Shown piece by piece: positions 1 through 62,733 of a stretch of DNA of 64,000 nucleotides. The stretch is taken from the NCBI GenBank assembly GCA_036496605.1, contig DASXKV010000032.1, forward strand, positions 248,001 through 312,000. Direction: 5' to 3'. Positions within the stretch are counted from its first letter, which is position 1; every line of letters starts with the position of its first letter. The notes beneath the pieces are model-generated. The model was not told the origin of the DNA and searched no databases. It saw only the letters and a list, made by a program, of their open reading frames with translations. Source of the stretch: Gemmatimonadaceae bacterium (lineage in GTDB: Bacteria > Gemmatimonadota > Gemmatimonadetes > Gemmatimonadales > Gemmatimonadaceae). The position numbers and the translations under genes are program-made.

Positions 1-1203
1 GGCGGGCTCCTCCTCGGCGTCGTGATCGGATATCCCCTCGGCATGTGGGTGCCGATGACGGCGATGCCTCAGCGGATCGCGCTTTCGCTGACGTTCAGCG
101 CACTCGCGGCGGCGCTGGTGGGCATCGCCGAGTACAACACTCGCATAACGAACAGTGAAGGGATACCGCGACCGATCATGGCCGCGCTAGGAATCGAGGT
201 GCTGTTAGGCATGGTCACCGTCGGCGGAACGCTCATCGCCGCTGGCAAGTTGCAGGAGCTGATCACCTCGCGGCCGCTGACGTATCGCGGCCAGAATCTC
301 GTGAATGCGCTGGTTTTTCTCGCGATGCTGACGCTATTCGGCATGCTCGTCGTACATCCCGAGCGGCAGGCGCTATTCTACGCGCTGATCGCGCTCGCGT
401 TCGTGTTCGGGATCCTCCTCGTGATGCCGATCGGCGGCGCTGATATGCCAGTGGTTGTCGCCTTGCTGAACTCGTATTCGGGGTTGGCGTCGTGCGCGAC
501 GGGTTTCGCGATCGGCAACGTGATCCTGATCATCAGCGGCTCGCTCGACGGATCGTCGGGATTCATCCTGTCTGTCCTGATGAGCAAGGCGATGAATCGC
601 TCGTTCACGAACGTGCTGTTCGGCGCTTTTGGCTCGCAGGTGACGGCGGGAGGCAAGACTACGGAAGGGTTGAGCGCTCGCTCAACGAGCGTCGACGACG
701 CAGCCGTGCAGCTGGCGTACGCGCAGCTCGTGATCGTGATCCCAGGCTATGGCATGGCGGTGGCCCAGGCGCAGCATCAGGTGCGCGAGTTGGCGGAGCT
801 GATCGAGGCGCGTGGCGGCGAGGTGAAGTTCGCGGTCCATCCCGTGGCTGGCCGCATGCCCGGGCATATGAACGTTCTGTTGGCAGAGGCGAACGTGCCG
901 TACGACAAGCTGTATGACATGGATGAGATAAACGGGGAGTTTGATCGTGCCGATGTTGCGCTCGTGATCGGCGCAAACGACGTCGTGAATCCGGCAGCGC
1001 GCACGGACAAGGCCTCTCCGATTTACGGCATGCCCATTCTCAACGCCGATCACGCAAAGAGCATCATCGTTCTGAAGCGCAGCATGGCCGCCGGTTTTGC
1101 TGGAATCGAGAACGAGCTGTTTTACAACCCGAAGACCTTGATGCTGTTCGGCGATGCCAAGAAGTCGCTCACAGGACTGGTGAGCGAGGTGAAGAACGTG
1201 TGA
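1..1203 (+). CDS. pntB: NAD(P) transhydrogenase beta subunit, 5'-truncated by window edge
   Basis: This is the membrane and NADP(H)-binding subunit of proton-translocating transhydrogenase, which couples hydride transfer between NADH and NADP+ to the proton gradient. The frame is open from base 1 (GGLLLGVVIGYPLG...), so the true start lies upstream. About 400 residues are visible against roughly 460-480 for the family. The first half is a run of hydrophobic helices. The C-terminal dIII domain carries the NADP-binding motif GYGMAVAQAQ and the sequence GANDVVNPAA, both diagnostic of PntB. An internal GTG at base 22 is not a credible start. pntA is expected just upstream, outside the window. A family A repeat follows the stop codon. 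Confidence 0.95.
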   Translation, partial: GGLLLGVVIGYPLGMWVPMTAMPQRIALSLTFSALAAALVGIAEYNTRITNSEGIPRPIMAALGIEVLLGMVTVGGTLIAAGKLQELITSRPLTYRGQNLVNALVFLAMLTLFGMLVVHPERQALFYALIALAFVFGILLVMPIGGADMPVVVALLNSYSGLASCATGFAIGNVILIISGSLDGSSGFILSVLMSKAMNRSFTNVLFGAFGSQVTAGGKTTEGLSARSTSVDDAAVQLAYAQLVIVIPGYGMAVAQAQHQVRELAELIEARGGEVKFAVHPVAGRMPGHMNVLLAEANVPYDKLYDMDEINGEFDRADVALVIGANDVVNPAARTDKASPIYGMPILNADHAKSIIVLKRSMAAGFAGIENELFYNPKTLMLFGDAKKSLTGLVSEVKNV

Positions 1204-1206
1204 TTC

Positions 1207-1262
1207 ATAATTGGAGATTGGTGGTTCGGATTTCACCAGCTACCAGGCACCAATCACCACTT
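1207..1262. repeat. Family A G/T-rich inverted repeat after pntB
   Basis: A left arm reading GGAGATTGGTGGTTCGG is followed about 10 bases later by a right arm reading CTACCAGGCACCAATCACCAC. The right arm is an imperfect reverse complement built from the same short words (GATTGGTG / CACCAATC). The same vocabulary recurs near 19450, 29880-29985, 31310-31458 and 62736-62835. Its place directly after a stop codon suggests an RNA hairpin at the transcript end, but there is no U-tract. Confidence 0.6.
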
Positions 1263-1333
1263 TGACCGCAAGCCTCGGATAGCCTGTCCGCGCAAGAACC
1301 CTAGCTTGCGCTCCAGTCCTTTCCGGAGCATCC

Positions 1334-3491: not shown

Positions 3492-4517
3492 GTGTATTCC
3501 ACCTGCCTGTTCTGTAACGCGAACCTCGGGACGAACGAGGTAATCGAATCCTTTCCCATCGGGCGGCGGTTGGCGTTCGATGCGGCGAACGGGCGGCTTT
3601 GGGTGGTGTGTCGGAAGTGCGAGCGGTGGAACCTGTCGCCGCTCGAGGAGAGGTGGGAGGCGATCGAAGCGTGCGAGCGATGCTTTCGTGACACGCGGCT
3701 GAGGGTGTCGACGGACAATATCGGGCTCGCACGAGTGCGCGAAGGGCTCGAGCTGGTGCGCGTAGGACCGGCGCTGCGGCCGGAGTTCGCGGCATGGCGA
3801 TATGGCGACCAATTCGGCCGGCGACGCCGACGAAGGATGGTTCGCGTCGGTCTCGGCGTGGGGATTGTCGGTGGTGCGATCGCGGGCGGGGTCGCGTTAG
3901 GCGTGAGCGCCGGCGTGGGGTTCGGCAGCGGCGGTTGGTGGATCTGGCGTGGGATCTACGCCGGCTATCGACGGATCGCGTATGGCAGCGAAGACGCCAT
4001 CGTCGCGCGTATCCCGTACGAAGACAAGGCGCATGGCGAGCGAGTTGCTGCCGTGCGTCGTCGGGACCTTGTCGACGTTAGGCTAGGCAGCGCGGGAAAT
4101 GGGGGGCTTCTCCTCTCACTGCCACTTCGCGGAGAGACGCTGCACCTGACGGGTGAGGAAGCGGAACGAGGCGCGGGCTACATCCTCCCGGCGATCAATT
4201 GGGCGGGCGCGGAAAAGCGCGAGGTCGAGCACGCCGTGCGACTCATCGAGGATTCGCAGAAGCCATCCTCCGAATTCGTGCACGAAGTGGCGCGCCAATC
4301 GGGGATGGGACGACGGCTTCAAGAGCTACCGAGTGCGTCGAGGCTTGCGCTGGAAATGGCGTCGCACGAGGAGAGCGAGCGTCGCGCGATGGAAGGCGAG
4401 CTCGCACTGCTCGAGACGGCATGGCGGCAAGCTGAGGAAATCGCGAAGATTGCCGACAACTTGCTCGTTCCTCCCTCGGTGGATGAGTTCCTGGAGCGAA
4501 ACCGGGGAAAAGACTGA
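3492..4517 (+). CDS. Zinc-ribbon and membrane-segment protein of unknown function
   Basis: This 341-residue protein probably starts at the GTG at 3492. The N-terminus has two CxxC pairs (CLFC near residue 5 and CRKC near 35) and a third pair (CERC near 58), typical of a zinc ribbon. A basic stretch RRRRRRM near residue 113 precedes a glycine-rich hydrophobic segment (about residues 118-155) that could span the membrane. The rest is soluble, ending in a charged helical region. I do not recognise the family. Its stop overlaps the start of the next gene (TGATG at 4515-4519), so the two are probably translated together. Confidence 0.75.
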   Translation: MYSTCLFCNANLGTNEVIESFPIGRRLAFDAANGRLWVVCRKCERWNLSPLEERWEAIEACERCFRDTRLRVSTDNIGLARVREGLELVRVGPALRPEFAAWRYGDQFGRRRRRRMVRVGLGVGIVGGAIAGGVALGVSAGVGFGSGGWWIWRGIYAGYRRIAYGSEDAIVARIPYEDKAHGERVAAVRRRDLVDVRLGSAGNGGLLLSLPLRGETLHLTGEEAERGAGYILPAINWAGAEKREVEHAVRLIEDSQKPSSEFVHEVARQSGMGRRLQELPSASRLALEMASHEESERRAMEGELALLETAWRQAEEIAKIADNLLVPPSVDEFLERNRGKD

Positions 4518-5557
4518 TGGCATCCGGCGCGGCGCGGCCGTCGACCAATCGCTCGACCGAACACGATCCGGGCATCGCGACGGCGCGCGATCGCGCCGAC
4601 GAAATCACGCGATCGGCGCCCGCGCTTGTCCACGCCGGCGAAACTGTCGTTCGCTTCGGGACGGCCAGCTGGACGGACCCGACATTGATCGCGCCTGGAG
4701 TCTTCTATCCGGATCGCGTGACGTCGGCAGAGGCGCGGCTCAGATACTACTCCAGTGTTTTCTCCGTCGTCGAGGTCGACTCGTCGTATTACGCGCTGCC
4801 GACGCGGCGCGTCGCGGAGCTCTGGGTCCACCGGACGCCGGAAGACTTCTCATTCGACGTGAAGGCGTTCGGCTGGATGACAGGTCACGCGACGGAGACC
4901 GCGCGCTTGCCACGCGTGCTCCAGGACGCGCTACCTAACGAGATCGTGGATAAGAAGCGTCTCTACGCCAAGGACGTGCCTCACGAGATTCGAGATGAGG
5001 CCTGGCGTATCTTTGCCGACGCGATCTCTCCACTCCACGAAGCGGGAAAGCTCGGCGCGGTGTTCCTTCAGTATCCGTCGTGGGTGCGACCGGCACAGCA
5101 CAGCGCGGAGATGCTCGCGCGTGCGCGACGACGCTTGGGTGAGCTGCCGATTGCGGTCGAGTTCCGCCACAGCGACTGGTTGGCGCGCGCGCATCGTGCG
5201 CGCACGCTGGCGCTGCTTCGCGAGCAAGAGATGAGCTACATAATCGTCGACGAGCCGCAAGGATTTGCGTCGAGCGTACCGCCGGACCTCGCCGTCACAT
5301 CGTCTCGATTGGCCGTCGTTCGACTGCACGGACGTCGAGGTGAGACGTGGGAGAAGCGCGGCACGACGGTACTCGAACGGTTTCGCTACTTGTACAACGA
5401 AGAGGAGCTCGGTGGTTGGGTGCCGAAGATCGTGGAGATCGCCGGTGAGGCCGAGCAGGTGCACGTCGTCTTCAATAATTGCTATGGCAACTATGGGACG
5501 ACCAACGCGATGGAGATGGCGGGAATGGTTGCCCAGAGAGTGGTGGGTCGAGGGTAG
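4517..5557 (+). CDS. DUF72 (YecE-like) TIM-barrel protein
   Basis: This 346-residue protein begins at an ATG sharing one base with the stop of the upstream gene. Residues from about 45 match DUF72/YecE: FGTASWTDP, VEVDSSYYALP, the EFRHSDWL strand, VRLHGRR and the closing HVVFNNCYGNYGTTNA. The family folds as a TIM barrel related to xylose-isomerase-like enzymes; its substrate is unknown. The first ~44 residues are low-complexity and may reflect a start chosen too far upstream, although the coupled ATG is attractive. The last residues (VVGRG) and the TAG stop come from a family B repeat that continues into the intergenic space. Confidence 0.9.
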   Translation: MASGAARPSTNRSTEHDPGIATARDRADEITRSAPALVHAGETVVRFGTASWTDPTLIAPGVFYPDRVTSAEARLRYYSSVFSVVEVDSSYYALPTRRVAELWVHRTPEDFSFDVKAFGWMTGHATETARLPRVLQDALPNEIVDKKRLYAKDVPHEIRDEAWRIFADAISPLHEAGKLGAVFLQYPSWVRPAQHSAEMLARARRRLGELPIAVEFRHSDWLARAHRARTLALLREQEMSYIIVDEPQGFASSVPPDLAVTSSRLAVVRLHGRRGETWEKRGTTVLERFRYLYNEEELGGWVPKIVEIAGEAEQVHVVFNNCYGNYGTTNAMEMAGMVAQRVVGRG

Positions 5558-7140: not shown

Positions 7141-9255
7141 ATGAAAGCATCGATTGCGTTGGTCTTTGCCGCCGTGGCCGGAACGGCCAGTCAGTCGTTA
7201 GGTGCTCAACAGCAGCGGCCGATCACGTTTGACGATTTCGCCGCGGTGCGCGCAGTCTCTGATCCGCAGGTCTCACCCGATGGACGCTCGGTGCTGTATG
7301 CGGTGAGGACGACTGATGTCGCTGCGAACCGGCGCACGGGAAAGACCTTTGTCGTCGCAGTATCGGGCGCGGCACCACGTGTCTTCCCAGGTGACGACGT
7401 CAACGCGAGCGAGGCGCGCTGGTCGCCGGACGGTCGGCGCATCGCGTACATCGCGACGGGACAGTTGTGGGTAGCAGATAGTGCCGGCAGCAATCGCATC
7501 CAGCTCACCAATCTGAGTGGTGGCGCAACGGGACCTGTCTGGTCGCCTACCGGATCGCTCATCGCGTTCACGACGTCGGCCTATCCCGATTGCACGACGG
7601 ACGCATGCAACTCGTCTCGGGACAGCGCCGCGGCGGCGAATCCGGTGAAAGCGCACATCGCCGACCAGTTGATGTTCAGGCACTGGACCGCATGGGACAA
7701 CGGAACGCGCTCGCACTTGTTCGTTGTCTCACCCGACGGCTCAGGGCTACGCGATCTCACGGCCGGTGCGCGATATGACGTACCGCCTGGACCTTTCGGC
7801 GGCAGCGAGGGTTACGCGTTTTCGCCTGATGGCACCGAGATGGCCTACACGGCCAAGGACGCTGGTCGCGCCGACGCGTGGTCGACGGATGTCAACGTCT
7901 ACGTCGTACCGACGGCTGGTGGCCCGGCGACGGTGATCACGGCCGCGAACAGGGGAGCCGATCAGAACCCAATCTACACGCCTAACGGGCGATTCATCGC
8001 ATACTCGTCGCAGAAGACCGCGGGCTTCGAGTCGGACCGGTGGCGGCTGATGTTGTACGAGCGAGCGACGAAGACGAGCCGTGAGCTGCTCCCATCGTGG
8101 GATCGAAATGCCGACTCGTACTTCTTCGCGCCGGATATGAGCGCGCTCTATGTGAACACGACCGATGTCGGCAGAGAGAAGCTATATCGCTTCGTGCTCG
8201 AGCAGGGGACGGCTGGGGCGAGTCTGGTGAAACCGCGTGGGCCCGCCCTTCTCGTCGGCGAGCACAACAACGCTGGCTTCACCCTGTCAGCCGATGGGCG
8301 GACGCTCGCCTGGGCGCGTGACGCCGCCGATCAGCCAGCCGAAGTTTTCGTCGCCAACGTCGAGCCTAACGGGAAGGCCGCCGCGCGCCAGCTCACCCAC
8401 GAGAACGACGCCCTCGTGAAGCGGTTGGCCGTCAATCCAGTCGAGGATTTCTGGTTCAAGGGCGCGACCGGCGACAGCGTCCAGGGATTCATCGTCAAGC
8501 CGCCGCAGTGGCAAGCGGGGCGAAAGTATCCAACGGTGCTGTTGATTCACGGCGGACCACAGGGAGCTTGGCTCGATCAATGGCACTCGCGCTGGAATTA
8601 CCAGATGTTCGCCGCGCCGGGCCTTGCGCTCGTGATCGTGAATCCGCGTGGGTCTACGGGCTACGGCCAGGCATTCGTCAACGGTGTCTCGAAGGACTGG
8701 GGTGGCAAGGTTTATACGGATCTGATGAACGGTCTGGACGCGGCGCTGGCACGCAACAGCTGGATGGATCGCTCGCGGTTAGGCGCGGCCGGCGGCTCCT
8801 TCGGCGGCTACATGGTTGACTGGATCGCGGGACACTCGACGCGATTCAAAGCGCTGGTGTCGCACGCTGGCCCGTTCAACCTCGAGAACATGAACACGGC
8901 CACCGAGGAACTGTGGTTCCCGGAGTGGGAGTACGGCGGCGATTTCTGGAATCCGAAAGCGATGCGCGAGCAGTATCGGGTGTACTCGCCACATCTCTAT
9001 GCAAAGAACTTCAAGACGCCGACGCTGGTGAGCGGTGGTGAGCTCGACTTTAGAGTTCCCTATACCGAGGACCTGTCGATGTTCACGGCGTTGCAGCGTC
9101 AGGGTGTGCCGAGCCGGCTGGTCATCTTCCCCGACGAGGGGCACTGGGTGCTGAAGCCGCAGAATCAGCGGCTGTGGTGGGGCGAGGTGCAGAGCTGGTT
9201 GACGAAATATCTGGGAACGTCACAGGTCTCGAGCGTCAACACGCCACAGCTGTGA
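7141..9255 (+). CDS. Secreted S9 family (prolyl oligopeptidase-type) peptidase
   Basis: This 704-residue protein has an N-terminal signal peptide (MKASIALVFAAVAGTASQSL). I take the ATG at 7141 rather than the in-frame ATG at 7099 because the signal peptide begins there. Residues about 30-430 are a WD/PD40-like beta-propeller (repeated PDG and SPDG turns). The rest is an alpha/beta hydrolase with nucleophile serine in GGSFGGYM (near residue 552), aspartate in GELDFRVP and histidine in DEGHWV. This matches the dipeptidyl/acylaminoacyl peptidase branch, which cleaves short peptides; it probably works in the periplasm on imported peptides. It ends in a perfect hairpin shared with the convergent ALDH gene. 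Confidence 0.93.
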   Translation: MKASIALVFAAVAGTASQSLGAQQQRPITFDDFAAVRAVSDPQVSPDGRSVLYAVRTTDVAANRRTGKTFVVAVSGAAPRVFPGDDVNASEARWSPDGRRIAYIATGQLWVADSAGSNRIQLTNLSGGATGPVWSPTGSLIAFTTSAYPDCTTDACNSSRDSAAAANPVKAHIADQLMFRHWTAWDNGTRSHLFVVSPDGSGLRDLTAGARYDVPPGPFGGSEGYAFSPDGTEMAYTAKDAGRADAWSTDVNVYVVPTAGGPATVITAANRGADQNPIYTPNGRFIAYSSQKTAGFESDRWRLMLYERATKTSRELLPSWDRNADSYFFAPDMSALYVNTTDVGREKLYRFVLEQGTAGASLVKPRGPALLVGEHNNAGFTLSADGRTLAWARDAADQPAEVFVANVEPNGKAAARQLTHENDALVKRLAVNPVEDFWFKGATGDSVQGFIVKPPQWQAGRKYPTVLLIHGGPQGAWLDQWHSRWNYQMFAAPGLALVIVNPRGSTGYGQAFVNGVSKDWGGKVYTDLMNGLDAALARNSWMDRSRLGAAGGSFGGYMVDWIAGHSTRFKALVSHAGPFNLENMNTATEELWFPEWEYGGDFWNPKAMREQYRVYSPHLYAKNFKTPTLVSGGELDFRVPYTEDLSMFTALQRQGVPSRLVIFPDEGHWVLKPQNQRLWWGEVQSWLTKYLGTSQVSSVNTPQL

Positions 9256-14549: not shown

Positions 14550-14550
14550 T

Positions 14551-38915: not shown

Positions 38916-38962
38916 GGCTGCAGTTCCTCGTGTGAGAGCTCGATTCCTGGCGACGCGGAAGC

Positions 38963-42096: not shown

Positions 42097-42303
42097 CTCG
42101 TTACGCCGTTATATCAACACGAGCCGGTCACGCTCGACGAGCCGGGACATTTGCGCCTAACGTGGGAGTGCGTTCCACGGCTGCGCACCTATCTCGCCGC
42201 ACTCGGTCGCCATCGCCATCGCGCGACAGCTCTACAATTACGATCTCGCCCAGGCCAGGGACTTCGTCGAATCCCTCAGGGCCGGCCAACGACGCAGCGC
42301 CTG
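42097..42303 (+). pseudogene. Possible frameshifted gene remnant
   Basis: Downstream of the propeller gene one frame reads LVTPLYQHEPVTLDEPGHLR then LTWECVPRLRTYLAAL. About four codons later a neighbouring frame takes over with VAIAIARQLYNYDLAQARDF and VESLRAGQRRSA, ending in a stop at 42303. Each part looks like real protein, but neither has a start codon and a +1 shift is needed at about 42205. It could be a decayed gene or coincidence; it overlaps nothing else and ends next to the coxE stop. Confidence 0.25.
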
Positions 42304-45356: not shown

Positions 45357-47700
<2,344 letters not shown>

Positions 47701-50664: not shown

Positions 50665-51444
50665 ATGTCGAAGCATTTTCTGCTCGTGAGCGACTTCGAT
50701 CAAACCCTGAGCTTCAACGACTCGGGGCATCTGTTGAGCGAGTCGCTCGGCCTCACCGGCTTCGCGGAGAAAGTCGCGGGATTGTCGCGGCTGAACCTCG
50801 TGCAGTCGGGCGCGGAGCTGACCTATTTGTTGCGCCACGACCCCGAATTCCGCCGCGTGCGCCGTGACGATCTCGTCGACGTCGGCCGCCGCATCCGTCT
50901 CAAGCGGAACATCGATATGCTCGCCGATTGCCTGGAGCGGGGCATCGACGGCTATCGCTTCGATTTCTACGTCCTGTCCGCGGCGCCGCAGGAAGTCGTG
51001 AATGCCGCGCTCGACGGCATCGTGCCGCCCGACCGAATTATCGCGACCTGTTTCGAGTTCGACGCTGCCACGGGCGAGATCGCGTCCGTGCTGCGCGTCC
51101 CGGCCGGCTTCGGCAAGGTCGCGGCGCTCGATGAGCTCCGCTTTCGACTCGGCGTTCCGCGCGAGCGCGTTGTCTACGTGGGCGACGGGAGCTCGGACAT
51201 CCATGTGATGCTCCACGTCAATCGCGGCGACGGCCTAACGATTGCCGCGTCGGAAGCACGGCACATCGCGCAGATCGCACGCCGGACCGTGATCAGCGAC
51301 GACGCGCTGAGCGTGCTCGTGCCGGTGCTCGAGGAAGTCGTCGGCTACGATCCCGGACGGATCCGGCTCTTGTTCGAGCAGCGCGGCCTCCTCATTCAGG
51401 AGTGGGACCGCGTCCGCACGGATTGGCTCACGATCCGCGCCTGA
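50665..51444 (+). CDS. HAD-superfamily phosphatase (phosphoserine-phosphatase/MtnX-like)
   Basis: The 259-residue protein starts at ATG 50665 with GCGGAGG upstream. HAD motif I is SDFDQT near residue 10, motif II serine is in [10 protein letters not shown], the motif III lysine is probably in FGKVAAL, and motif IV is [11 protein letters not shown]. The cap region between motifs I and II resembles the phosphoserine phosphatase/MtnX branch. The substrate is a small phosphate ester, not named by sequence. Its stop overlaps the convergent Gfo/Idh gene by 17 bases. Confidence 0.88.
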
Positions 51445-52492
51445 TCGAGACGACCTGTCGGCCAGCCGCCGACTGCTGCGCCGCCTCGATGATCTCGAGC
51501 CCGGCGACCGAATCGTTAGGGTCGACGGGCGGCGCCGTGCTCTCGCGGAGCGCCGCCGCAACGCCGGTATAGAAATCCTGATACGAGCCGGGCACCGTCC
51601 GTACCGATTGGCGGTCGTCGGCGACGCCTAACGTGCCCCAGCGCTCGGGCGGCTCCTCACCCCAGCCCGGCCGCGTCGGCTGCTCGCCCCGTTTCAAGGC
51701 ATCTTCCTGAACATCAGACCCGAATTTCAAATACGCGGCGCGACTGCCCATGATGTGGAAGCGCGGACCAGGCTGCGCGGCCACGACGGTCATCGTTAGA
51801 TGTGAGCGCGCACCCGATGCGTGCGCCAGCGCGACGAAGGCATCGTCGTCGACCGGCCTCCCAGCGCGGCGATCCAGCTCGGCATACACATCGGACACGG
51901 GCCCAAGGAGCAACAGCGCCTGATCGATCAGGTGACTCCCAAGATCGTACAGTAGCCCGCCCGCCTCGGCGGGATCGCCGCGTTCGCGCCAACCTCCTTT
52001 CGGAATCGGCCGCCAACGGTCGAAGCGCGAATCGAGACGAAACACGGTTCCGAGGCTCCCGTCCGAGGCCAATTGCCTAACGGTGAGAAAGTCGCTGTCC
52101 CATCGCCGATTCTGAAAGACGGTGAGCAGCAGGTTACGTTCGCTGGCATGCGCGATCAGTGCGCGACCTTCGGCCGCAGTCGGCGCGAAGGGCTTGTCGA
52201 CGACGACCGGTAGCCCCGCATCGAGCGCCGCTCGGGCGAGCGGCACGTGCGTTCGATTCGGCGTCGCGACGACGACGAAGTCGAGATCGCGGGCATCGTC
52301 CCAGAGTCGATCTGCGCTCTCCACGATTCGCGCGCTCGGATGATCGTGCGCGGCTTTCGCGCGCCGATCGGAGTCGCCGGTGACGATCGCGGCCAGGCGC
52401 AACGCCGGCGTCGAAACGATGAGCGGCGCGTGAAAGACCGAACCGGCGAGTCCATAGCCGATCAGACCGACGCGAATAGGTGCTGGAGCCAT
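51428..52492 (-). CDS. Gfo/Idh/MocA-family NAD(P)-dependent oxidoreductase
   Basis: The 354-residue protein has an N-terminal Rossmann domain ([40 protein letters not shown]) with the family's catalytic lysine region VVDKPFAPT near residue 98. The C-terminal alpha/beta domain includes [20 protein letters not shown]. Members oxidise or reduce sugars and cyclitols with NAD(P). The substrate is unknown. It overlaps the HAD gene tail to tail. Preceded by no obvious partner gene. Confidence 0.92.
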
Positions 52493-53303: not shown

Positions 53304-53505
53304 GCTGTTGCATAACGAGTCGCGTCCGGCGCGCGCGGGACTGTCGTGTTCGTCTCGACGCGTTGCGTACCGGCTGTAACGAGTCGATCGGCTTCCACGG
53401 GTATCCGGCACTGTCTCGCCCGCGATTTGCGTTCGCGGCCTCCAAGGGCGTCCGCTCGTGTGGAAATGGGGGAGGATGAGCGACGCACTCACTCAGGGAG
53501 GCGTT

Positions 53506-53931
53506 ATGCGGAGGTACGTGCTGGCGTCCCTCGCGATGCTACTCATCGCGTGTGGCGGCGACAAGGCTATTGGTCCCGAAACAGTCGCAGGGACTTACAC
53601 ACTCCAGACAGTGAACGGAAACAATGTGCCCGCGGCGTTTTACGAGGACTCGCAGGAGCGAGACGAGTTCGTCAGCGGCAGCGTAGTTCTGGCGGACGAC
53701 AATAGCTGGACCGGCCAGCTCGGCGTGCGCGGCACGGACCTAACGACGAACGAGATGTTCGTCAACACCAACGCGCCGGTCGGCGGTACGTTCTCGTTCA
53801 AGAACGGCCAGATCACGCTGACCGATTCCTTCAACGGCCTGGTGTTCACCGGCACGGTCGCCGGAGCAACGCTGTCGGTCGGGACGCAAATCGTGCTCGG
53901 AGCGCCGACGTCGTTCGTCTTCCGTAGATAG
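53506..53931 (+). CDS. Hypothetical lipoprotein
   Basis: The 141-residue protein starts at ATG 53506 with GGGAGG upstream. It has a lipoprotein leader (MRRYVLASLAMLLIAC, lipobox LIAC). The mature part is short beta strands (GTYTLQTVNGNNVPAAFYED, GTFSFKNGQITLTDSFNGLV, GTVAGATLSVGTQIVLG). This looks like a small beta-barrel or sandwich lipoprotein often found in this kind of genome, without a known role. Confidence 0.75.
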   Translation: MRRYVLASLAMLLIACGGDKAIGPETVAGTYTLQTVNGNNVPAAFYEDSQERDEFVSGSVVLADDNSWTGQLGVRGTDLTTNEMFVNTNAPVGGTFSFKNGQITLTDSFNGLVFTGTVAGATLSVGTQIVLGAPTSFVFRR

Positions 53932-54108: not shown

Positions 54109-56019
54109 ATGGACCCGCCATTCGTCATGGACACGACCGCGCTCCCTGAGATCGCGACGACGAGTATTCGCCAGCTCGAGGCATCGTGGACCAGTCCACA
54201 CAACGCGCTGGCGTGGCTCGCGACGGTCGACCACAAAAAGCTCGGCATTCGCTACATCGTCACCGCCTTCGTCTTCTTTCTCCTCGGCGGCGTCGAAGCA
54301 GCGTTGATGCGCGCGCAGCTCGCGCGCCCTGAAGCGCGTCTCCTCTCACCGGAGCTGTACAACCAGCTGTTCACGATGCACGGCACCACGATGATGTTCC
54401 TCTTCATTCAGCCGGTGCTATCGGGATTCAGCTTCTATCTCACGCCGCTCATGATCGGCGCGCGAGAGCTCGCCTTCCCACGGCTGAACACGTTCAGTTA
54501 TTACGCATTTCTGCTTGCGGGCGTGTTTATGTACGCGAGCTTCGCCATTGGCCACGCGCCCGATGGCGGATGGTTCGCGTACACGCCGCTCACCGGACCG
54601 CGCTTCGATCCCGGAATCAACATGGAGTTCTACGTCCTCGGACTCCTCTTCCTCGGCATCTCGACGACGGCGGGCGCGATCAACTCCATCGTCACGATTC
54701 TCAAACTGCGAGCACCCGGCATGTCGATCGATCGCATGCCGCTGTTCTTGTGGAGCTCGCTCACGATGTCGATCTCCGTCGTGCTCGCAATGCCGGCACT
54801 TACCGTCGCTCTCGGCTTTCTCGAGCTGGAGCGACGCTGGCATTTCGTTTTTTTCAATCCGGCGCTCGGCGGCACGCCGTTGCTCTGGCAACACCTGTTC
54901 TGGGTGTTCGGACACCCGTGGGTGTACATCATTTTCCTTCCCGCCACGGGCATGCTCTCGATGATCATTCCCGTCTTCTGCCGGCGTCCGATCATTGGCC
55001 ACACGTTTCTCGCCGTCTCCACGGTGGTGACGGGGCTCATTGGCTTCGGCGTCTGGGTGCATCACATGTTCGCGACGGGCCTCCCGCAGCTGTCGATGAG
55101 CTTTTTCGGCGCTGCGAGTATGACCATCTCGATTCCAAGCGCGGTCACCATCTTCGCCTGGATTGCGACGATGTGGCACGGACGTGTCGTACTCGCCACG
55201 CCGATGCTGTTCGCTCTCGCCTTCATTCTGCAATTCACGATCGGCGGTATCACGGGCGTCATGGGCGCCGCGGTGCCGTTCGACTGGCAGATCCACGATA
55301 CGTATTTCGTGGTGGGACATATCCATTACGTGATTGCGGGAAGCTCCGTCTTCGCGGTGTTCGCGGCCCTGTACTACTGGTTCCCGAAGATGACGGGGCG
55401 GTTGCTGAGCGAGAGCATCGGCAAGGCGAGCTTCTGGGTGATGACGATCGGCTTCAACCTCGCGTTCTTTCCGATGCACATTGCTGGGCTGCTCGGCATG
55501 CCGCGCCGTGTGTACACATTCCAGCCAGGCCTCGGACTCGAGAGCTCGAATCTCGTCTCCACGTTAGGCGCGTATCTCTTCGCGATCGGCGTCGCGATCA
55601 CGATCTGGAACGTCGCGCAGAGCCGCTTCGCCGGTGTGCTGGCCGGTCCCGACCCGTGGGGCGCGAGCTCGCTCGAGTGGCTCGCAAGCTCACCGCCGCG
55701 AGAGTACAACTTCGAGCATATCCCGCTCGTGACGAGCCGGGATCCACTCTGGGACGGCGGGCTGCGCTTCGGCCCTGCCTACGACGAGGGGCGGCTCACG
55801 CCGCGCACCTCGGCGCTGGATGCCCAGCTCGAAGCGGTCATCGAACTGCCGGAAGACAATGGCTGGACCGTGCTCATCGCTGTTACGCTGCTCGTCGCCT
55901 TTGTCGGATTGCTCGTTAGGCTCGACTGGTTGACGGCTCTCGGCGGTGTGGCGACCCTGCTCTGTCTCGCGCGCTGGCTGTGGCCCGTTCACGACAAGAT
56001 GTTGGAGACCGAGGTATGA
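54109..56019 (+). CDS. Cytochrome c oxidase subunit I, alternative form
   Basis: The 636-residue protein (start ATG 54109; 54079 and 54127 are alternatives) has about 12-14 membrane segments. All metal ligands are seen: the haem a histidine in TMHGTTMMF, CuB ligands and the tyrosine in FGHPWVYI, the HH pair in VWVHHMFATG, and VVGHIHYV. The glutamate of HPEVYI is replaced by tryptophan (HPWVYI). The lysine expected in the PTGIKIF-type motif is a threonine (IPSAVTIF). These are the classical D- and K-channel residues. It is the first gene of a tightly overlapping operon. Function: O2 reduction; pumping is in doubt. Confidence 0.93.
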   Translation: MDPPFVMDTTALPEIATTSIRQLEASWTSPHNALAWLATVDHKKLGIRYIVTAFVFFLLGGVEAALMRAQLARPEARLLSPELYNQLFTMHGTTMMFLFIQPVLSGFSFYLTPLMIGARELAFPRLNTFSYYAFLLAGVFMYASFAIGHAPDGGWFAYTPLTGPRFDPGINMEFYVLGLLFLGISTTAGAINSIVTILKLRAPGMSIDRMPLFLWSSLTMSISVVLAMPALTVALGFLELERRWHFVFFNPALGGTPLLWQHLFWVFGHPWVYIIFLPATGMLSMIIPVFCRRPIIGHTFLAVSTVVTGLIGFGVWVHHMFATGLPQLSMSFFGAASMTISIPSAVTIFAWIATMWHGRVVLATPMLFALAFILQFTIGGITGVMGAAVPFDWQIHDTYFVVGHIHYVIAGSSVFAVFAALYYWFPKMTGRLLSESIGKASFWVMTIGFNLAFFPMHIAGLLGMPRRVYTFQPGLGLESSNLVSTLGAYLFAIGVAITIWNVAQSRFAGVLAGPDPWGASSLEWLASSPPREYNFEHIPLVTSRDPLWDGGLRFGPAYDEGRLTPRTSALDAQLEAVIELPEDNGWTVLIAVTLLVAFVGLLVRLDWLTALGGVATLLCLARWLWPVHDKMLETEV

Positions 56020-56642: not shown

Positions 56643-57055
56643 TCGACGCCGGCACCGAGCGAATTCCCGTGAGTCAGCGGCGACTGTGGTTTGGCGTTTT
56701 GATCGCGCCGGCCGCCTGGATCATCGCGCTCATTGTCGGCTATCTCCTCGTGTCGCGTGGCTGTGACATCGCACCGAACGGCCTGCGTGGGCGGCCGGTC
56801 GCCAGCCCGGGCGTCGTGCAGGTCGTGTTCGGCGTGGCTTTCACCGTGCTCGCGTTAGGCTCCCTCTGGGCGGCGCGCGGGTCGTACCGCGCGATTGTCG
56901 CCTCGCGTCCACCAGGCCAGAGCACGCGCGTGGAGTGGGACCGCGCTCGATTCATGGCGCTCGTCGGAATTCTCGTCGCCTCGATCTTCGCATTCGGCAT
57001 CGCACTGATCGCGATTGCGCCATTGATGTTGAACGCATGCATGCAAGCGCACTGA
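56639..57055 (+). CDS. Membrane protein of oxidase operon
   Basis: A 138-residue protein, ATG 56639, overlapping the subunit III stop (ATGA). It has three membrane segments: WFGVLIAPAAWIIALIVGYL (near 18-37), GVVQVVFGVAFTVLALGSL and FMALVGILVASIFAFGIALI. A cysteine follows helix 1 (SRGCD). I recognise no family; its place between subunit III and CtaG suggests an assembly or small oxidase subunit. The next gene begins inside its last codons. Confidence 0.75.
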   Translation: MIDAGTERIPVSQRRLWFGVLIAPAAWIIALIVGYLLVSRGCDIAPNGLRGRPVASPGVVQVVFGVAFTVLALGSLWAARGSYRAIVASRPPGQSTRVEWDRARFMALVGILVASIFAFGIALIAIAPLMLNACMQAH

Positions 57056-57900
57056 GTCCCGCCGATGTGTGGACGTCGTGGGGTGGCGAACCCGGCGTCA
57101 TCGTGGCGATTGCCGTTGCGGCCGCCGCGTACGCGTCGGGCGTACGCGCCTTGTGGCGACGAGCCGGTGTCGGCCGCGGCGTTCCGCGTTGGCGAGTCAC
57201 CGCGTTCTCGGCTGGCCTTGCGACCATTGCCATCGCATTGCTGTCACCGCTCGACGCTCTGGGAGAGACGCTCTTCTCGGCGCACATGGTTCAGCATCTC
57301 CTCCTCATGATGCTTGCGCCGCCACTCCTCGTGCTCGGCATGCCGCATGTGGCGGCGGCGTGGCTGTTGCCGCCACGGCGCCTAACGTGGCTGCGGCAGC
57401 GGCACGCCACACGGGGGCTTCTCGCCGTCTGGCATGGAGCGACAACGTGGCCCTTCGCCCTCGGCAGCAGTACGGCCGCGCTCTGGCTCTGGCACGCGCC
57501 ACGATTGTACACGCTGGCGCTCGAGCGGCCCTGGGTTCATGCGCTCGAGCACCTGAGCTTCATCGCGACGGCGATCCTGCTCTGGTGGCGCATTCTTCTG
57601 CCGCGACACGAACGGCGATCGGCCTATGCGATCGGCGTGCTTCTCCTTCTCGCGACCTCGATGGAGAGCGGCGCGTTAGGCGCCGTACTCGCGTTCGCGC
57701 GCGAGCCATGGTTCCCAATACAGGCCGCGGGAGCGCGTGCGTGGGGGATCACGCCGCTCGAGGACCAGCAGCTCGCAGGGCTCATCATGTGGGTTCCGGG
57801 TGGACTCTTCTACATCGCCGCTGCGGGAGCGCTCTTCGCGACCTGGCTCGCCAATCACCGTGCACCGTCCAACGTCGCGGTCTCCGGGGGCATCCCATGA
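57037..57900 (+). CDS. ctaG: caa3-type oxidase assembly factor CtaG
   Basis: The 287-residue protein starts at ATG 57037, overlapping the previous gene by 19 bases. Seven or so membrane segments carry the caa3_CtaG histidines: SAHMVQHLLLMMLAPPLLVL, LWHAPRLYTLALERPWVHAL and EHLSFIATAILLWWRIL. CtaG of this kind helps copper insertion during assembly of caa3-type oxidases. Its presence in the operon links the operon to terminal oxidase biogenesis. The stop overlaps the cytochrome gene (ATGA). Confidence 0.88.
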   Translation: MHASALSPADVWTSWGGEPGVIVAIAVAAAAYASGVRALWRRAGVGRGVPRWRVTAFSAGLATIAIALLSPLDALGETLFSAHMVQHLLLMMLAPPLLVLGMPHVAAAWLLPPRRLTWLRQRHATRGLLAVWHGATTWPFALGSSTAALWLWHAPRLYTLALERPWVHALEHLSFIATAILLWWRILLPRHERRSAYAIGVLLLLATSMESGALGAVLAFAREPWFPIQAAGARAWGITPLEDQQLAGLIMWVPGGLFYIAAAGALFATWLANHRAPSNVAVSGGIP

Positions 57901-58274
57901 TCCGGTCGCGGTCGTTAGGCAGCTGGCGTGTGCTCATCGTCATCGCTGTCGTCGCGTGCGCCCGGCGCGTCTCCAACAGCGCGGTGCCGGGAGGCGACGT
58001 CTCGCGCGGCGCGACGGCGCTCGCGGCTTTCTCGTGCGGCGCGTGTCATCAGATCGACGGCATCGCTGGCGCAGCGGGACTGGTTGGCCCGCCGCTCAAT
58101 GGCATTGCCGATCGCACGATGATCGCGGGCGAGCTGCCCAACACGCCGGACAACATGAAACGGTGGATCATTGATCCGCAATCCGTGGAGCCGAATACCG
58201 CGATGCCGAATCTCCACGTCTCCCCGATTGTCGCGCGCGACATGGTCGCCTACCTCTACACGTTACGGAACTGA
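57897..58274 (+). CDS. Membrane-attached cytochrome c of oxidase operon
   Basis: The 125-residue protein begins at ATG 57897, sharing ATGA with ctaG. It has a hydrophobic leader with a lipobox-like end (VLIVIAVVAC) and one haem site CGACH near residue 47. A methionine ligand candidate is in NTAMPNLHVS. It is short and class I-like. It probably carries electrons into the subunit II haem next door. The stop shares a base with the ATG of the next gene. Confidence 0.88.
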   Translation: MIRSRSLGSWRVLIVIAVVACARRVSNSAVPGGDVSRGATALAAFSCGACHQIDGIAGAAGLVGPPLNGIADRTMIAGELPNTPDNMKRWIIDPQSVEPNTAMPNLHVSPIVARDMVAYLYTLRN

Positions 58275-59293
58275 TGGGGTGCCGCGTTCAGTACGCCGCG
58301 ATCCGTATGGCGCTCCCCGCGACCGTCGTGGCGCTGGCCGCGTGCGATACGCCGATGAACGCGCTCGACGCAAGCGGCGATCCGGCACGACGCATCGCGA
58401 CGCTCGGCTGGTTCATGATCGTGCTGTCCGCGATCATCTTCATCGGGGTCGTGATCGTGCTTGCCTGGGCCGTGTCGCGCAATCGGCGCACCACGGACCT
58501 CAGTCCGGACCTCACGCCACGAGGACGCGGCTGGATCGTGTATGGCGGGGCGCTCATGCCCACGCTCGTACTCGTCGCGATCTTCGTCGTCGCGATGAGC
58601 ACTCTTGGAATGTTCCCCGTGCGCGGCGCCCCACCGGTGCTGACCATTCACGTTACCGGCCGCCAGTGGTGGTGGCAGATCGACTATCTCGGACCGAAGC
58701 TGCAGACGTACTTGACGACTGCGAACGAGATCCACATCCCCGTCGGTCAGCCGGTGCGAGTGCTTCTGACCTCCGCGGACGTCATCCACAGCTTCTGGGT
58801 GCCGAAGCTGCAAGGCAAGCTCGATCTCATCCCGGGTGACACGAACGACATTCGCCTTCGCGCCGAGCGTCCCGGCGAATATCGCGGGCAGTGCGCCGAG
58901 TATTGCGGGCTCCAACACGCGCACATGGCCTTCACCGTCGTCGCCGACGACTCGGCCACGTTCGCCCGGTGGTGGCGCGCGCAGCTCGAACCGGCCACTC
59001 CACCCGCGGATTCACTGACGCAGCTCGGACAGCGGGTCTTTGTGAATGGCCCATGCGTCGTTTGTCACACCGTGCGTGGCACTCCGGCACGGGGCCAGAT
59101 TGCGCCGGATCTCACCCACGTCGGCAGCCGCAGAACGATCGCCGCGGGCGTACTGCCGAACTCGTTAGGCGCGCTCGAAGGATGGATCGCGAATGCGCAG
59201 TCGCTCAAGCCCGGCACGCAGATGCCGAACATCACCCAATTCAACGGCCGCGAGCTCCGCGCTCTCGCGGCCTACGTGTATAGCCTGAAGTAG
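58274..59293 (+). CDS. Cytochrome c oxidase subunit II with C-terminal cytochrome c
   Basis: The 339-residue protein starts at ATG 58274 (TGATG overlap). A leader or lipobox (VALAAC) and two membrane helices (LGWFMIVLSAIIFIGVVIVL, PTLVLVAIFVVAMSTLGMF) precede the CuA domain. That domain has the WWWQIDY patch, HSFWVPKLQGK and the CuA site CAEYCGLQHAHM. A cytochrome c domain follows with CVVCH near residue 260 and NMPNITQF-like methionine. This CuA plus haem c fusion is the caa3 layout. It is the last gene of the operon. Confidence 0.93.
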   Translation: MGCRVQYAAIRMALPATVVALAACDTPMNALDASGDPARRIATLGWFMIVLSAIIFIGVVIVLAWAVSRNRRTTDLSPDLTPRGRGWIVYGGALMPTLVLVAIFVVAMSTLGMFPVRGAPPVLTIHVTGRQWWWQIDYLGPKLQTYLTTANEIHIPVGQPVRVLLTSADVIHSFWVPKLQGKLDLIPGDTNDIRLRAERPGEYRGQCAEYCGLQHAHMAFTVVADDSATFARWWRAQLEPATPPADSLTQLGQRVFVNGPCVVCHTVRGTPARGQIAPDLTHVGSRRTIAAGVLPNSLGALEGWIANAQSLKPGTQMPNITQFNGRELRALAAYVYSLK

Positions 59294-60847: not shown

Positions 60848-60849
60848 AC

Positions 60850-62733
60850 ATGGCGGCGCGCGTGGACCCGGAGTTCCTCGAACTGCAGTCCGCCTTGGCG
60901 GGGGAGTATTCCCTCGAGCGGGAGCTGGGTCGGGGCGGAATGGGCATCGTGTACCTCGCGCGCGAGGTTCAGCTCAACCGGCTGGTTGCGATCAAGGTCC
61001 TCCCAGGCACTCGTCCCGAGCTACGCGAGCGCTTCGTTCGAGAAGCCCGCACCGCCGCTTCGCTCTCTCATCCGAACATCGTTCCGATATACCGCGTCGG
61101 CGAGGCGGGCGAATTCGTCTACTTCGCCATGGCGTTCGTCGACGGTGAGACGCTCGGTGAGCGATTGAGACTACGGGGTCCTCTCTCTCCCGCGGTCGCG
61201 ACTCGACTGCTGCGAGAGGTTGCCTGGGCGCTCGCCTACGCGCATGGCCGCGGCGTCGTCCATCGCGACGTCAAGCCGGACAACATTCTGATCGAAAAGG
61301 CAACGGGCCGTGCGCTCGTCACCGATTTCGGCATCGCTACGGGTGACGACGATGGCGAAAGTGCCGGACGCATCATGGGTACGGCCCAATTCATGAGTCC
61401 GGAACAAGCAACTGGTGGCGTGGTCGACGGCCGCAGCGACCTGTATTCCCTCGGTATTGTCGGCTATCTCGCGCTCTCGGGCCGCCTTCCCTTCGACGCC
61501 GAGACGCTTCCGGCGCTACTGGCGAGACAGGTGAACGAGCCAGCAACGCCACTGGCGCGTGCCGTATCGGGATTACCGCGACCCCTCGCAGCGTCGATCG
61601 ACCGCTGTCTTCGGAAAGACGCGGCGGAGCGCTTTGCGACGGGTGAGGCGATGGCGGATGCGCTCGACGAGTTCCCATCGAATCGCACGCAATTGCCCGC
61701 GCCACTTCGACTGTGGCTCCGGGCGTCGGACCCGCTCAAGCCGCTCTATCTGATGTGGAGCACGGTCTTCTTCATGGGCACGCTCTCGGAGCTGCGGCGC
61801 GGCGACTGGCCAGTCACACTCGCGTTCATGCTTCTGCCAGCGATCCCGAGCTTCACCTTCCACGCCCGGAAGCTGCGCAAAGTGCTTGGAGCGGGCTACA
61901 CACTGCCCGATGTGCAGCACGCCGTGAAGCTATGGCAGGCAGAAAAGCGCGAGGAGCTGGCGTTCGAGCGAGAGGGTCAGCTGTCGCGCGGGTTCCAGAT
62001 TCTACGCGGAGCAACGATCGGATTTGCGGCGCTATTCGGGCTTCTGGTAACCCGCGTGATCGATCCCTACAGCCTTCTCCGGTGGGTATCACACTCGCTT
62101 CCAGCGCGAGTTCTTGCGATGGCGGTCGTGGCCGTCCCCGGGGTAGCAGCCGTCGTGTCCGCGATCGCCTCGCACGCGCTCGGCGTTCCCTTTGTCCCGC
62201 GCGACCTGCGACGCCGCCTAACGGGTGCGGTGCGGACCTGGTTCTGGAGTAGCCGCGCGGGCGCGCTGGTGACGCGCTTGTTGACACCGAAGCGTCGTGA
62301 CCGACCGGTATCGCTCGACTACCGCCCGACCGAGATGGCCTTGGGCCTGGCGGTTGGCGATCTGTTCGACGCGCTGCCGAAGTCGTATCGCATCCATCTC
62401 GCGGAGCTGCCCGACGTCGTTAGGCGACTCGAAGCGCATGCGGCTGCCTGCCGGGCGGATGTCGAGCGCGTCGAATCGCTCGACGCGGGTGGAGACGGTG
62501 CACTCGCGGCGCCGCGAGCGCATGCTCGGGAATCTCTGGCGCAAGCAGTCGCGGCGCTGGAGTCGATCCGGCTCGATCTGCTGCGACTCCACGGCGGCGA
62601 GACCGATCTGCGCCCGATCACCTCGGTGCTCGAGGCGTCGCAGCAGATGGGGATCGAGCTGGCGCGCCTAACGAATGCCCGTGGCGAAGTCGAGGCGATC
62701 GCGCCCGCGAAGCCGATTCCGACGCCCGCCTGA
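60850..62733 (+). CDS. Membrane-anchored serine/threonine protein kinase
   Basis: The 627-residue protein starts at ATG 60850 (MAARVDPEFLELQ). The kinase domain occupies residues 20-285 with GRGGMGIVYLA, catalytic VAIKVL lysine, HRDVKPDNILIE, DFGIATGDD and GTAQFMSPEQ: all residues for activity are present. A pair of membrane segments follows (LYLMWSTVFFMGTLSEL and TLAFMLLPAIPSFTF). Another pair lies at about 385-440 (GFAALFGLLVTRV, VLAMAVVAVPGVAAVVSAIA). The end is helical (ESLAQAVAALESIRLDLLRL). No PASTA sensor domain. Possible client: FHA protein at 30164. Confidence 0.93.
   Translation: MAARVDPEFLELQSALAGEYSLERELGRGGMGIVYLAREVQLNRLVAIKVLPGTRPELRERFVREARTAASLSHPNIVPIYRVGEAGEFVYFAMAFVDGETLGERLRLRGPLSPAVATRLLREVAWALAYAHGRGVVHRDVKPDNILIEKATGRALVTDFGIATGDDDGESAGRIMGTAQFMSPEQATGGVVDGRSDLYSLGIVGYLALSGRLPFDAETLPALLARQVNEPATPLARAVSGLPRPLAASIDRCLRKDAAERFATGEAMADALDEFPSNRTQLPAPLRLWLRASDPLKPLYLMWSTVFFMGTLSELRRGDWPVTLAFMLLPAIPSFTFHARKLRKVLGAGYTLPDVQHAVKLWQAEKREELAFEREGQLSRGFQILRGATIGFAALFGLLVTRVIDPYSLLRWVSHSLPARVLAMAVVAVPGVAAVVSAIASHALGVPFVPRDLRRRLTGAVRTWFWSSRAGALVTRLLTPKRRDRPVSLDYRPTEMALGLAVGDLFDALPKSYRIHLAELPDVVRRLEAHAAACRADVERVESLDAGGDGALAAPRAHARESLAQAVAALESIRLDLLRLHGGETDLRPITSVLEASQQMGIELARLTNARGEVEAIAPAKPIPTPA

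What the first reader, a model, noticed from the sequence alone, without database searches (positions are those of the whole stretch)
205..62673. Octamer GCCTAACG/CGTTAGGC is strongly over-represented across the whole window
Counting by eye I find about 40 exact copies of GCCTAACG or its complement CGTTAGGC in 64 kb (examples: 3895-3902, 7980-7987, 8364-8371, 13219-13226, 55562-55569, 57913-57920, 62666-62673), and about 60 copies of the CCTAAC/GTTAGG core. With a base composition near 65% GC one expects only a handful of the 8-mer. The word is used in different reading frames (L-G as TTA GGC, P-N as CCT AAC, L-T as CTA ACG, V-R as GTT AGG), on both strands, in genes of all kinds, across stop codons and between genes. 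TTAG is nearly always followed by G. So it is a DNA-level signal, not codon use. Its density (about 1 per 1.5 kb) and lack of strand polarity resemble a DNA uptake sequence as in Haemophilus or Neisseria. A chromosome-organisation site or a modification-linked motif are alternatives. I know of no described signal of this sequence in this kind of organism.
Basis: partly seen in the sequence, partly recalled or inferred. Interest (0 to 1): 0.78.

Follow-up and report, generated by a model that had tools for sequence, protein, structure and literature searches.

The report
Genome-wide octamer in Gemmatimonadaceae soil bacteria
Some genera of a common soil bacterial family carry hundreds to thousands of copies of one short DNA word, written into their genes largely by silent codon choices, much like the tags that Haemophilus and Neisseria use to recognise their own DNA for uptake; no such tag turned up in print for this phylum in the literature searched.

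Summary
In detail: 41 exact GCCTAACG/CGTTAGGC in the window, 3,411 in the genome against 408 for the reversed word. In 464 kb, synonymous-codon shuffling predicts 5 coding copies; 182 are seen. In eight rpoB-region genes, 12 motif-bearing genomes use 41 of 217 permissible places, 8 motif-free relatives 0 of 148. It is patchy: 26 of 179 family genomes (11 of 35 genera) have 223-4,469 copies, the other 153 have 1-70. There is no replication polarity. Here the consensus is GCCTAACGA with at most one tolerated mismatch. Tolerance differs between genera: GCATAACGA is enriched in seven motif genera and near zero in four, a dialect pattern that fits a binding protein with an affinity threshold. Sites avoid each other below about 200 bp in this genome. 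Best explanation: a DNA uptake sequence of type IV pilus/ComEC competence (confidence 0.6). ComEC is in all 14 motif genomes tested, but also in 15 of 16 motif-free ones. No receptor was found, uptake was not measured, and close inverted pairs, frequent in Haemophilus, are absent in the part of this genome examined.

The parts
3895..3902 (-). exact octamer GCCTAACG (read on the given strand), in a gene
4076..4083 (-). exact octamer, in a gene
7980..7987 (+). exact octamer, in a gene
8364..8371 (+). exact octamer, in a gene
10036..10043 (-). exact octamer, in a gene
11420..11427 (-). exact octamer, in a gene
13219..13227 (+). full 9-mer GCCTAACGA, at a gene edge
20428..20435 (+). exact octamer, in a gene
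21623..21630 (+). exact octamer, in a gene
22001..22008 (+). exact octamer, in a gene
24560..24568 (+). full 9-mer GCCTAACGA, intergenic by my gene calls
25755..25762 (+). exact octamer, in a gene
29371..29378 (-). exact octamer, in a gene; same place in G011, G012 and Gemmatirosa (G072)
31983..31991 (+). full 9-mer, in a gene; ACCTAACG in G011 and G012
33147..33154 (-). exact octamer, in a gene; same place in G011, G012 and G072
33501..33508 (-). exact octamer, in a gene; same place in G011, not in G012 or G072
33972..33979 (-). exact octamer, in a gene; same place in G012 and G072 (G011 not aligned here)
34319..34326 (+). exact octamer, intergenic by my gene calls; not kept in G012
35471..35478 (-). 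exact octamer, in a gene; not kept in G012
38961..38969 (+). full 9-mer at a gene edge; octamer kept in G011 and G012 though its flanks are only 38-40% identical; not kept in G072
40247..40254 (-). exact octamer, in a gene; same place in G012, not in G011 or G072
42155..42162 (+). exact octamer, intergenic by my gene calls
43168..43175 (-). exact octamer, in a gene; not kept in G072
43610..43617 (+). exact octamer, in a gene; same place in G072
44711..44719 (-). full 9-mer GCCTAACGA, in a gene
45496..45503 (+). exact octamer, in a gene
47241..47249 (+). full 9-mer, in a gene
48984..48992 (+). full 9-mer, in a gene
51233..51241 (+). full 9-mer, in a gene by my gene calls
51626..51633 (+). exact octamer, in a gene
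52075..52082 (+). exact octamer, in a gene
55562..55569 (-). exact octamer, in a gene (COX1 open frame 54079-56019)
55913..55921 (-). full 9-mer, in a gene (COX1 open frame)
56853..56860 (-). exact octamer, in a gene
57380..57387 (+). exact octamer, in a gene
57674..57681 (-). exact octamer, in a gene
57912..57920 (-). full 9-mer, in a gene
59162..59170 (-). full 9-mer, in a gene
62216..62223 (+). exact octamer, in a gene
62417..62425 (-). full 9-mer, in a gene
62666..62674 (+). full 9-mer, in a gene
143..151 (+). tolerated variant GCATAACGA
47342..47350 (+). tolerated variant GCATAACGA
53310..53318 (+). tolerated variant GCATAACGA
24766..24774 (-). tolerated variant GCATAACGA
27077..27085 (-). 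tolerated variant GCATAACGA
4933..4941 (+). tolerated variant ACCTAACGA
53738..53746 (+). tolerated variant ACCTAACGA
7195..7203 (-). tolerated variant ACCTAACGA
12470..12478 (-). tolerated variant ACCTAACGA
23022..23030 (-). tolerated variant ACCTAACGA
10621..10629 (+). variant GCCTGACGA (46 seen, 8.4 expected in 464 kb, so some are chance)
14825..14833 (+). variant GCCTGACGA
16351..16359 (+). variant GCCTGACGA
18846..18854 (+). variant GCCTGACGA
29842..29850 (+). variant GCCTGACGA
30550..30558 (+). tolerated variant CCCTAACGA
9675..9683 (-). tolerated variant CCCTAACGA
51513..51521 (-). tolerated variant CCCTAACGA
38260..38268 (+). tolerated variant GCCTTACGA

Best explanation
GCCTAACG(A) is most likely the DNA uptake sequence of a natural-transformation system in part of the Gemmatimonadaceae. 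A surface DNA receptor, probably a type IV pilin, binds double-stranded DNA carrying the word. The pilus draws it in and ComEC passes one strand into the cell, where it recombines. Fragments with the word are taken up more often, so mutations that create it spread by biased replacement (molecular drive), mostly where the protein allows it. Shown: over-representation, DNA-level placement, lack of polarity, a 9-bp consensus with a sharp mismatch threshold in this genome, position-specific tolerance that differs between genera, mutual avoidance of sites at short range in this genome, patchy distribution, and presence of ComEC plus pilus genes. Inferred: that a binding protein reads it, that the protein is a pilin, and that uptake is the process it biases.
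For: No polarity: 103 forward and 119 reverse in 20 evenly spaced 20-kb samples of the Gemmatirosa chromosome, 104 vs 118 by GC-skew sign. Flanks to +-20 bp carry little information beyond -1 and +8. Exact 9-mer GCCTAACGA 74 vs 3.1 expected; one mismatch 364 vs 98, the excess mainly at positions 1 (A, C), 3 (A), 5 (G, T) and 9; two mismatches 1262 vs 1341. Four core variants carry a compensating A at position 9 in 25/30, 35/46, 46/75 and 12/16 cases, against 74/207 for perfect octamers and about 30% background. PMC1939737 (passages) reports over-representation that falls with mismatch load for the Haemophilus and Neisseria words. Dialects: GCATAACGA 397 copies in G000, 234 and 364 in its congeners, but 2-7 in all nine genomes of g3, g9, g12 and g19, which have 880-4,469 octamers each. 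Short-range avoidance in G000: 0 of 186 gaps under 150 bp (14.4 expected); with tolerated variants 27 of 363 gaps under 200 bp (53.7 expected), while reversed control words show 4 of 85 (3.4 expected). Conservation at 77-78% identity: 5 of 9 and 4 of 6 sites kept against about 16% of random octamers. ComEC in 14 of 14 motif genomes; in G000 ComEC carries a metallo-beta-lactamase domain, and PilM, PilN, PilO and pilins are present. PMC7305173 (passages) links ComEC loci to recombination in soil bacteria. One PilV-like pilin group was seen in 4 of 6 motif genomes and no motif-free one, from incomplete repertoires.
Against: No receptor found: pilins occur in all 6 motif-free genomes searched too, no pilin group held all 6 motif genomes and no motif-free one, and GspH/FimT does not track the motif (8 of 12 motif, 10 of 12 motif-free genomes). 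ComEC is also in 15 of 16 motif-free genomes. No close inverted pairs serving as terminators in the G000 sample (0 of 186 gaps under 150 bp), unlike Haemophilus. Gemmatirosa shows little short-range avoidance (19 of 250 gaps under 200 bp, 28.5 expected) and has 11 gaps under 50 bp (7.5 expected). Orientation bias in genes is weak (104 opposite, 79 same) and there is no clustering at gene ends, which PMC2346458 reports for Pasteurellaceae. Positions shared between distant genera in the rpoB region are not beyond chance once codon context is matched (p 0.22), so common descent of the sites is not shown. DprA, ComEA, PilQ and PilT were not searched. No experiment.
Confidence: 0.6

Rival explanations
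1. A genome-wide binding site with another role (nucleoid structure, recombination or replication control), read by an unknown protein, selected site by site.
For: Threshold-like recognition and genus-specific tolerance fit any binding protein. Samples of the two Gemmatirosa megaplasmids carry it at about chromosomal density (30 and 20 in the first 50 kb of each).
Against: No polarity; long gaps follow chance; avoidance under 200 bp in G000 reaches further than a usual protein footprint (footprint size recalled); close relatives do without it.
Confidence: 0.2
2. A HIP1-like, methylation-linked highly iterated word.
For: Similar kind of abundance and patchy taxonomy; HIP1 is linked to orphan methyltransferases in cyanobacteria (PMC4390886, start of abstract and passages).
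Against: Not a palindrome; PF01555 methyltransferases are missing from 7 of 12 motif genomes, G000 and Gemmatirosa among them, and present in 7 of 12 motif-free ones; graded, compensated mismatches do not look like a methylase site. Other methyltransferase families were not searched.
Confidence: 0.08
3. A Chi-like site that governs RecBCD/AddAB-type degradation.
For: Over-represented octamer.
Against: Chi words are oriented with replication (recalled); here 104 vs 118 by skew sign and 51 vs 44 on 240 kb of contig C32. The excess is far above what I recall for Chi.
Confidence: 0.04
4. Integron attC recombination sites or their remnants: GTTAGGC and GCCTAAC match the attC core consensus (recalled).
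For: Some f2 genomes show runs of mostly same-strand hits 0.5-1 kb apart, like cassette arrays (listed places; not fetched). Integron integrase matches are common: 10 of 12 motif and 12 of 18 motif-free genomes over the cut-off.
Against: The sites have uninformative flanks, no partner within 150 bp in 186 gaps, and lie inside essential genes by silent changes. Integrase presence does not track the motif.
Confidence: 0.02
5. Mutational or repair bias, or codon-pair use, without a DNA function.
For: A 6th-order Markov model nearly reproduces the count (198 vs 207).
Against: That model contains the motif. Synonymous shuffle gives 4.8 vs 182; four codon contexts and intergenic copies; close relatives lack it; abundance of a specific variant differs between genera with similar octamer load.
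Confidence: 0.03

Closest known systems
USS of Pasteurellaceae (AAGTGCGGT)
   Same: About 1 copy per 1-2 kb (recalled for USS), both strands, many in genes, no polarity, mismatch-graded excess
   Different: Unrelated sequence, different phylum; no close inverted pairs in the G000 sample; no bias to gene ends; receptor and uptake untested
DUS of Neisseriaceae (ATGCCGTCTGAA) and its dialects
   Same: Thousands of copies and related variants in related genera (PMC3630211, passages): here the octamer is shared and the tolerated variants differ
   Different: Shorter word, patchy down to motif-free close relatives, no ComP-like gene identified
HIP1 of cyanobacteria (GCGATCGC)
   Same: Highly iterated octamer with patchy taxonomy
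   Different: HIP1 is palindromic and methyltransferase-linked; this word is not a palindrome and no methyltransferase link was found in the one family searched
Integron attC core sites
   Same: GTTAGGC/GCCTAAC string (recalled consensus GTTRRRY/RYYYAAC)
   Different: attC has paired cores around a hairpin (recalled); in G000 these sites are single and scattered

Membership tests
DNA uptake sequence (DUS/USS) | Short word in hundreds to thousands of copies, far above chance | tested here: met
   3,411 copies vs 408 reversed; 182 vs 4.8 coding in synonymous shuffle of 373 genes
DNA uptake sequence (DUS/USS) | No replication polarity, both strands | tested here: met
   103/119 and 104/118 in Gemmatirosa samples; 1750/1661 in G000
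DNA uptake sequence (DUS/USS) | Mismatched forms over-represented, falling with mismatch load | tested here: met
   74/3.1, 364/98, 1262/1341 (seen/expected) at 0, 1, 2 mismatches of GCCTAACGA; criterion from PMC1939737 (passages)
DNA uptake sequence (DUS/USS) | One orientation commoner in reading frames | tested here: inconclusive
   104 opposite vs 79 same; criterion from PMC2346458 (Findings read)
DNA uptake sequence (DUS/USS) | Bias to gene ends (Pasteurellaceae only) | tested here: not met
   Quintiles 19,18,15,15,13 (same strand) and 16,20,22,23,23 (opposite)
DNA uptake sequence (DUS/USS) | Inverted close pairs as terminators (frequent in Haemophilus, not universal) | tested here: not met
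   0 of 186 gaps under 150 bp in G000
DNA uptake sequence (DUS/USS) | Host has type IV pilus and ComEC | tested here: met
   ComEC in 14 of 14 motif genomes; PilM/N/O and pilins in G000; pilin matches in all 6 motif genomes searched. Other parts of the machinery not searched
DNA uptake sequence (DUS/USS) | Sequence-specific pilin receptor | tested here: inconclusive
   No pilin group restricted to and shared by all motif genomes; repertoires incomplete
DNA uptake sequence (DUS/USS) | Motif-bearing DNA taken up preferentially | not testable with these tools
   Needs an uptake assay
HIP1 | Palindromic octamer | tested here: not met
   GCCTAACG is not its own complement
HIP1 | Orphan methyltransferase for an inner site | tested here: inconclusive
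   PF01555 absent in 7 of 12 motif genomes; other families not searched
Chi / KOPS | Orientation follows replication (recalled) | tested here: not met
Integron attC | Paired inverse cores within about 50-150 bp around a hairpin, in cassette arrays (recalled) | tested here: not met
   No gap under 150 bp in 186; flanks uninformative

The most novel reading that the evidence does not exclude
A self-recognition code with dialects in a phylum where none turned up in print: related soil genera share one core word but their reader proteins tolerate different variants, so that exchange would be possible inside a dialect group and restricted across groups. The core matches the integron attC core (recalled), so integron cassettes could pass as 'self' DNA.
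Probability: 0.3. Interest if true: 0.92.

Novelty: new variant of a known kind. Interest (0 to 1): 0.84.

Why it matters
Strong uptake sequences are known, as far as I recall and as the papers seen here describe, from two proteobacterial families. A third, in an abundant soil phylum with few cultures, would mean that sequence-guided DNA exchange arose again outside that group. The natural experiment is good: close relatives with and without the word (Gemmatirosa vs g33; G096-G100 vs G095) and two dialect groups allow comparative search for the reader protein, which for Pasteurellaceae is still only predicted (PMC12616744, abstract). It would also help to read recombination in soil populations from genome sequence.

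Tried and rejected
Rejected: codon or codon-pair use; mutational decay as the source of variants (positions 2 and 7 show no excess and position 6 little, and strict genera lack the variant); Chi/KOPS polarity; attC sites; a PF01555 methyltransferase link. Vsr-type repair is rejected by argument: the convertible precursor words are too few (GCTTAACG about 1 expected).

Led nowhere: grouping 91 pilin-like proteins from fetched loci of 12 genomes gave no group with all 6 motif genomes and no motif-free one; one PilV-like group held 4 of the 6. GspH/FimT. Other dialects in motif-free genera: in 11 genomes sampled at 11-81 kb no word like this stood out except repeat-like words in G132 (13 copies, not examined further) and G138; the G138 word CCTCTGTG lies mostly in clusters. 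The first rpoB tree used minus-strand loci unturned and was discarded; (quick method) replaces it. Positional sharing across genera first looked like common ancestry but is within chance when codon context is matched (p 0.0016 unmatched, 0.044 with Leu contexts only, 0.22 matched). The ComEC tree did not finish and was not repeated.

Papers: the exact word is in 183 papers of which 20 were listed, none on this subject by title (163 not seen). DNA uptake sequence + Gemmatimonadota, 0 papers; uptake sequence + Gemmatimonas, 0; Gemmatirosa + overrepresented + motif, 0; competence terms + phylum name, 2 each. PMC5217627 (motif scan of 569 genomes) and PMC4390886: passages only, no mention of Gemmatimonas.

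Full report
WHAT WAS CHECKED. The window lies in contig C32 of an unnamed 5.97-Mb draft genome, G000. The octamer GCCTAACG/CGTTAGGC occurs 41 times in the window, 207 times in 464 kb of the same genome (10.4 expected from a 3rd-order Markov model) and 3,411 times in the whole genome, against 408 for the reversed word.

WHICH NULL. Higher-order Markov models approach the observed count (84, 169 and 198 at orders 4, 5 and 6) because the subwords are mostly the motif. I therefore used other nulls. Shuffling synonymous codons across 373 genes (138,049 codons) leaves 4.8 +- 2.5 coding copies (maximum 10 in 20 shuffles) against 182. Same-composition words (1,680) have a median of 16 copies, though one (CTCGACGA, 211) is commoner than the motif. 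Genes were called by a quick script of mine, not a standard caller.

PLACEMENT. Of 207 copies 183 are coding, 14 intergenic and 10 on gene edges; 90% of the sequence is coding by the same calls. Frame 0 would be a stop codon on either strand and is empty; the other four frame-and-strand classes are all used. Motif copies occupy 182 of 957 permissible peptide contexts, 39 of 95 for x-P-N-x, and 68 of 245 TTA codons lie in the motif. There is no clustering at gene ends.

DNA-LEVEL SELECTION OR DRIVE. In rpoB the same residues (for example Ala-Leu-Gly) are coded with the word in several of 12 motif genomes and with other codons in all 16 motif-free ones. Over eight genes of the rpoB/rpoC region 12 motif genomes fill 41 of 217 permissible places and 8 motif-free ones 0 of 148. 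Against congeners at 77-78% identity 5 of 9 (G012) and 4 of 6 (G011) aligned sites are kept, and 4 of 9 against Gemmatirosa, where random octamers are kept in 16%, 16% and 11% (binomial p 0.007, 0.007, 0.012; these are not independent). One site at a gene edge is kept in both congeners although its flanks are not.

RECOGNITION RULE AND DIALECTS. In G000 the excess extends to position 9: GCCTAACGA. Words one mismatch away are in excess mainly at positions 1 (A, C), 3 (A), 5 (G, T) and 9; words two mismatches away are not (1262 vs 1341). Four core variants come with A at position 9 in 25/30, 35/46, 46/75 and 12/16 cases against 74/207 for the perfect octamer. This is what a binding protein with an affinity threshold would leave (inference). 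A whole-genome test of one variant, GCATAACGA, in 26 motif genomes splits them: above the reversed control in all 17 genomes of g1, g11, g13, g21, g23, g32 and g34 (36-397 copies), and 2-7 copies in all 9 genomes of g3, g9, g12 and g19; 10 motif-free genomes have 0-11. Gemmatirosa instead has C or T at -1 in 252 of 322 sites and an excess of C at position 4 (69 vs 25) and A at position 8 (35 vs 1.3).

SPACING AND POLARITY. In G000 no two octamers lie closer than 150 bp (0 of 186 gaps, 14.4 expected). With tolerated variants 27 of 363 gaps are under 200 bp against 53.7 expected; reversed control words show 4 of 85 against 3.4. Long gaps follow chance; the longest hold genes that look ordinary by eye. 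Gemmatirosa shows only a slight deficit under 200 bp (19 of 250, 28.5 expected) and some tight pairs (11 under 50 bp, 7.5 expected). There is no replication polarity.

DISTRIBUTION. In the family (179 genomes) 26 genomes of 11 genera have 223-4,469 copies and the other 153 have 1-70. Of 220 further genomes of the class 8 have 150 or more, seven in family f2 and one in f3; two of the eight (G248, G330) lie below their reversed control. G072 is taken to be Gemmatirosa kalamazoonensis: its contig C4 has the length of plasmid NZ_CP007130. G042 is probably Gemmatimonas aurantiaca T-27 (length recalled) and has 17 copies. On a quick rpoB tree (28 genomes, 12 with the motif) well-supported branches force at least 5 changes of state, and 51 of 500 shuffles were as clustered; motif-free G155 and G095 fall in the same small clades as motif-bearing G072 and G100. 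Repeated loss or repeated gain cannot be told apart; shared site positions between distant genera are within chance when codon context is matched.

MECHANISM. ComEC is in all 14 motif genomes tested and in 15 of 16 motif-free ones; in G000 it has a metallo-beta-lactamase domain, and PilM, PilN, PilO and pilins are present. Pilins, GspH/FimT (8 of 12 motif, 10 of 12 motif-free) and integron integrase (10 of 12, 12 of 18) do not track the motif. PF01555 methyltransferases are absent from 7 of 12 motif genomes. Uptake sequence is the known kind that fits most features; what is missing is a receptor and an uptake test. Known uptake words show mismatch-graded excess (PMC1939737, passages), lack a general orientation bias in genomes (PMC2346458, Findings section), and come in dialects (PMC3630211, passages).

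LIMITS. 'Motif genome' is defined by me as 223 copies or more in the family; there is a gap between 70 and 223. In some searches I also counted G319 (f2, 779 copies) as motif-bearing. Literature was searched only in the open-licence library.

Noticed in passing
G343:C5:12471-23164, G293:C31:42302-52880, G350:C39, G325:C2 (one search places, not fetched): Runs of mostly same-strand GCCTAACG hits every 0.5-1 kb in f2 genomes otherwise poor in the motif; they look like integron cassette arrays whose attC core equals the octamer (attC consensus recalled).
   Followed up: partly
30 genomes: Integron integrases (TIGR02249 over the cut-off) in 22 of 30 genomes of this order, motif-bearing or not.
   Followed up: no
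L119:60-1646 and 12863-12887 (G138): Clustered CTCTGTG-type repeats (CCTCTGTGTCTCTGTGCCTCTGTGG) of unknown nature.
   Followed up: partly
L112, L113 (G132): Repeats around AGTCCCTAGTCCC (overlapping words, 12-13 copies in 40 kb); G132 also had no ComEC match.
   Followed up: no
464 kb of G000 (window and L009-L028); places not mapped: Second over-represented words in G000: AGGGGCTAG (20 vs 0.1) and ACCAACCAC (38 vs 1.8), nature unknown.
   Followed up: no
L029-L030 (G072:C1): A 20,952-base contig repeats its motif pattern after about 15.0 kb, as if a circular replicon were assembled with overlapping ends.
   Followed up: no
Gemmatirosa stretches: TCGGGACT (83 vs 9.7) is a second strong word in Gemmatirosa.
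   Followed up: no
window 13228-20427: The longest octamer-free stretch of the window holds genes that look like chemotaxis CheR/CheB and a PAS kinase, by eye only.
   Followed up: no
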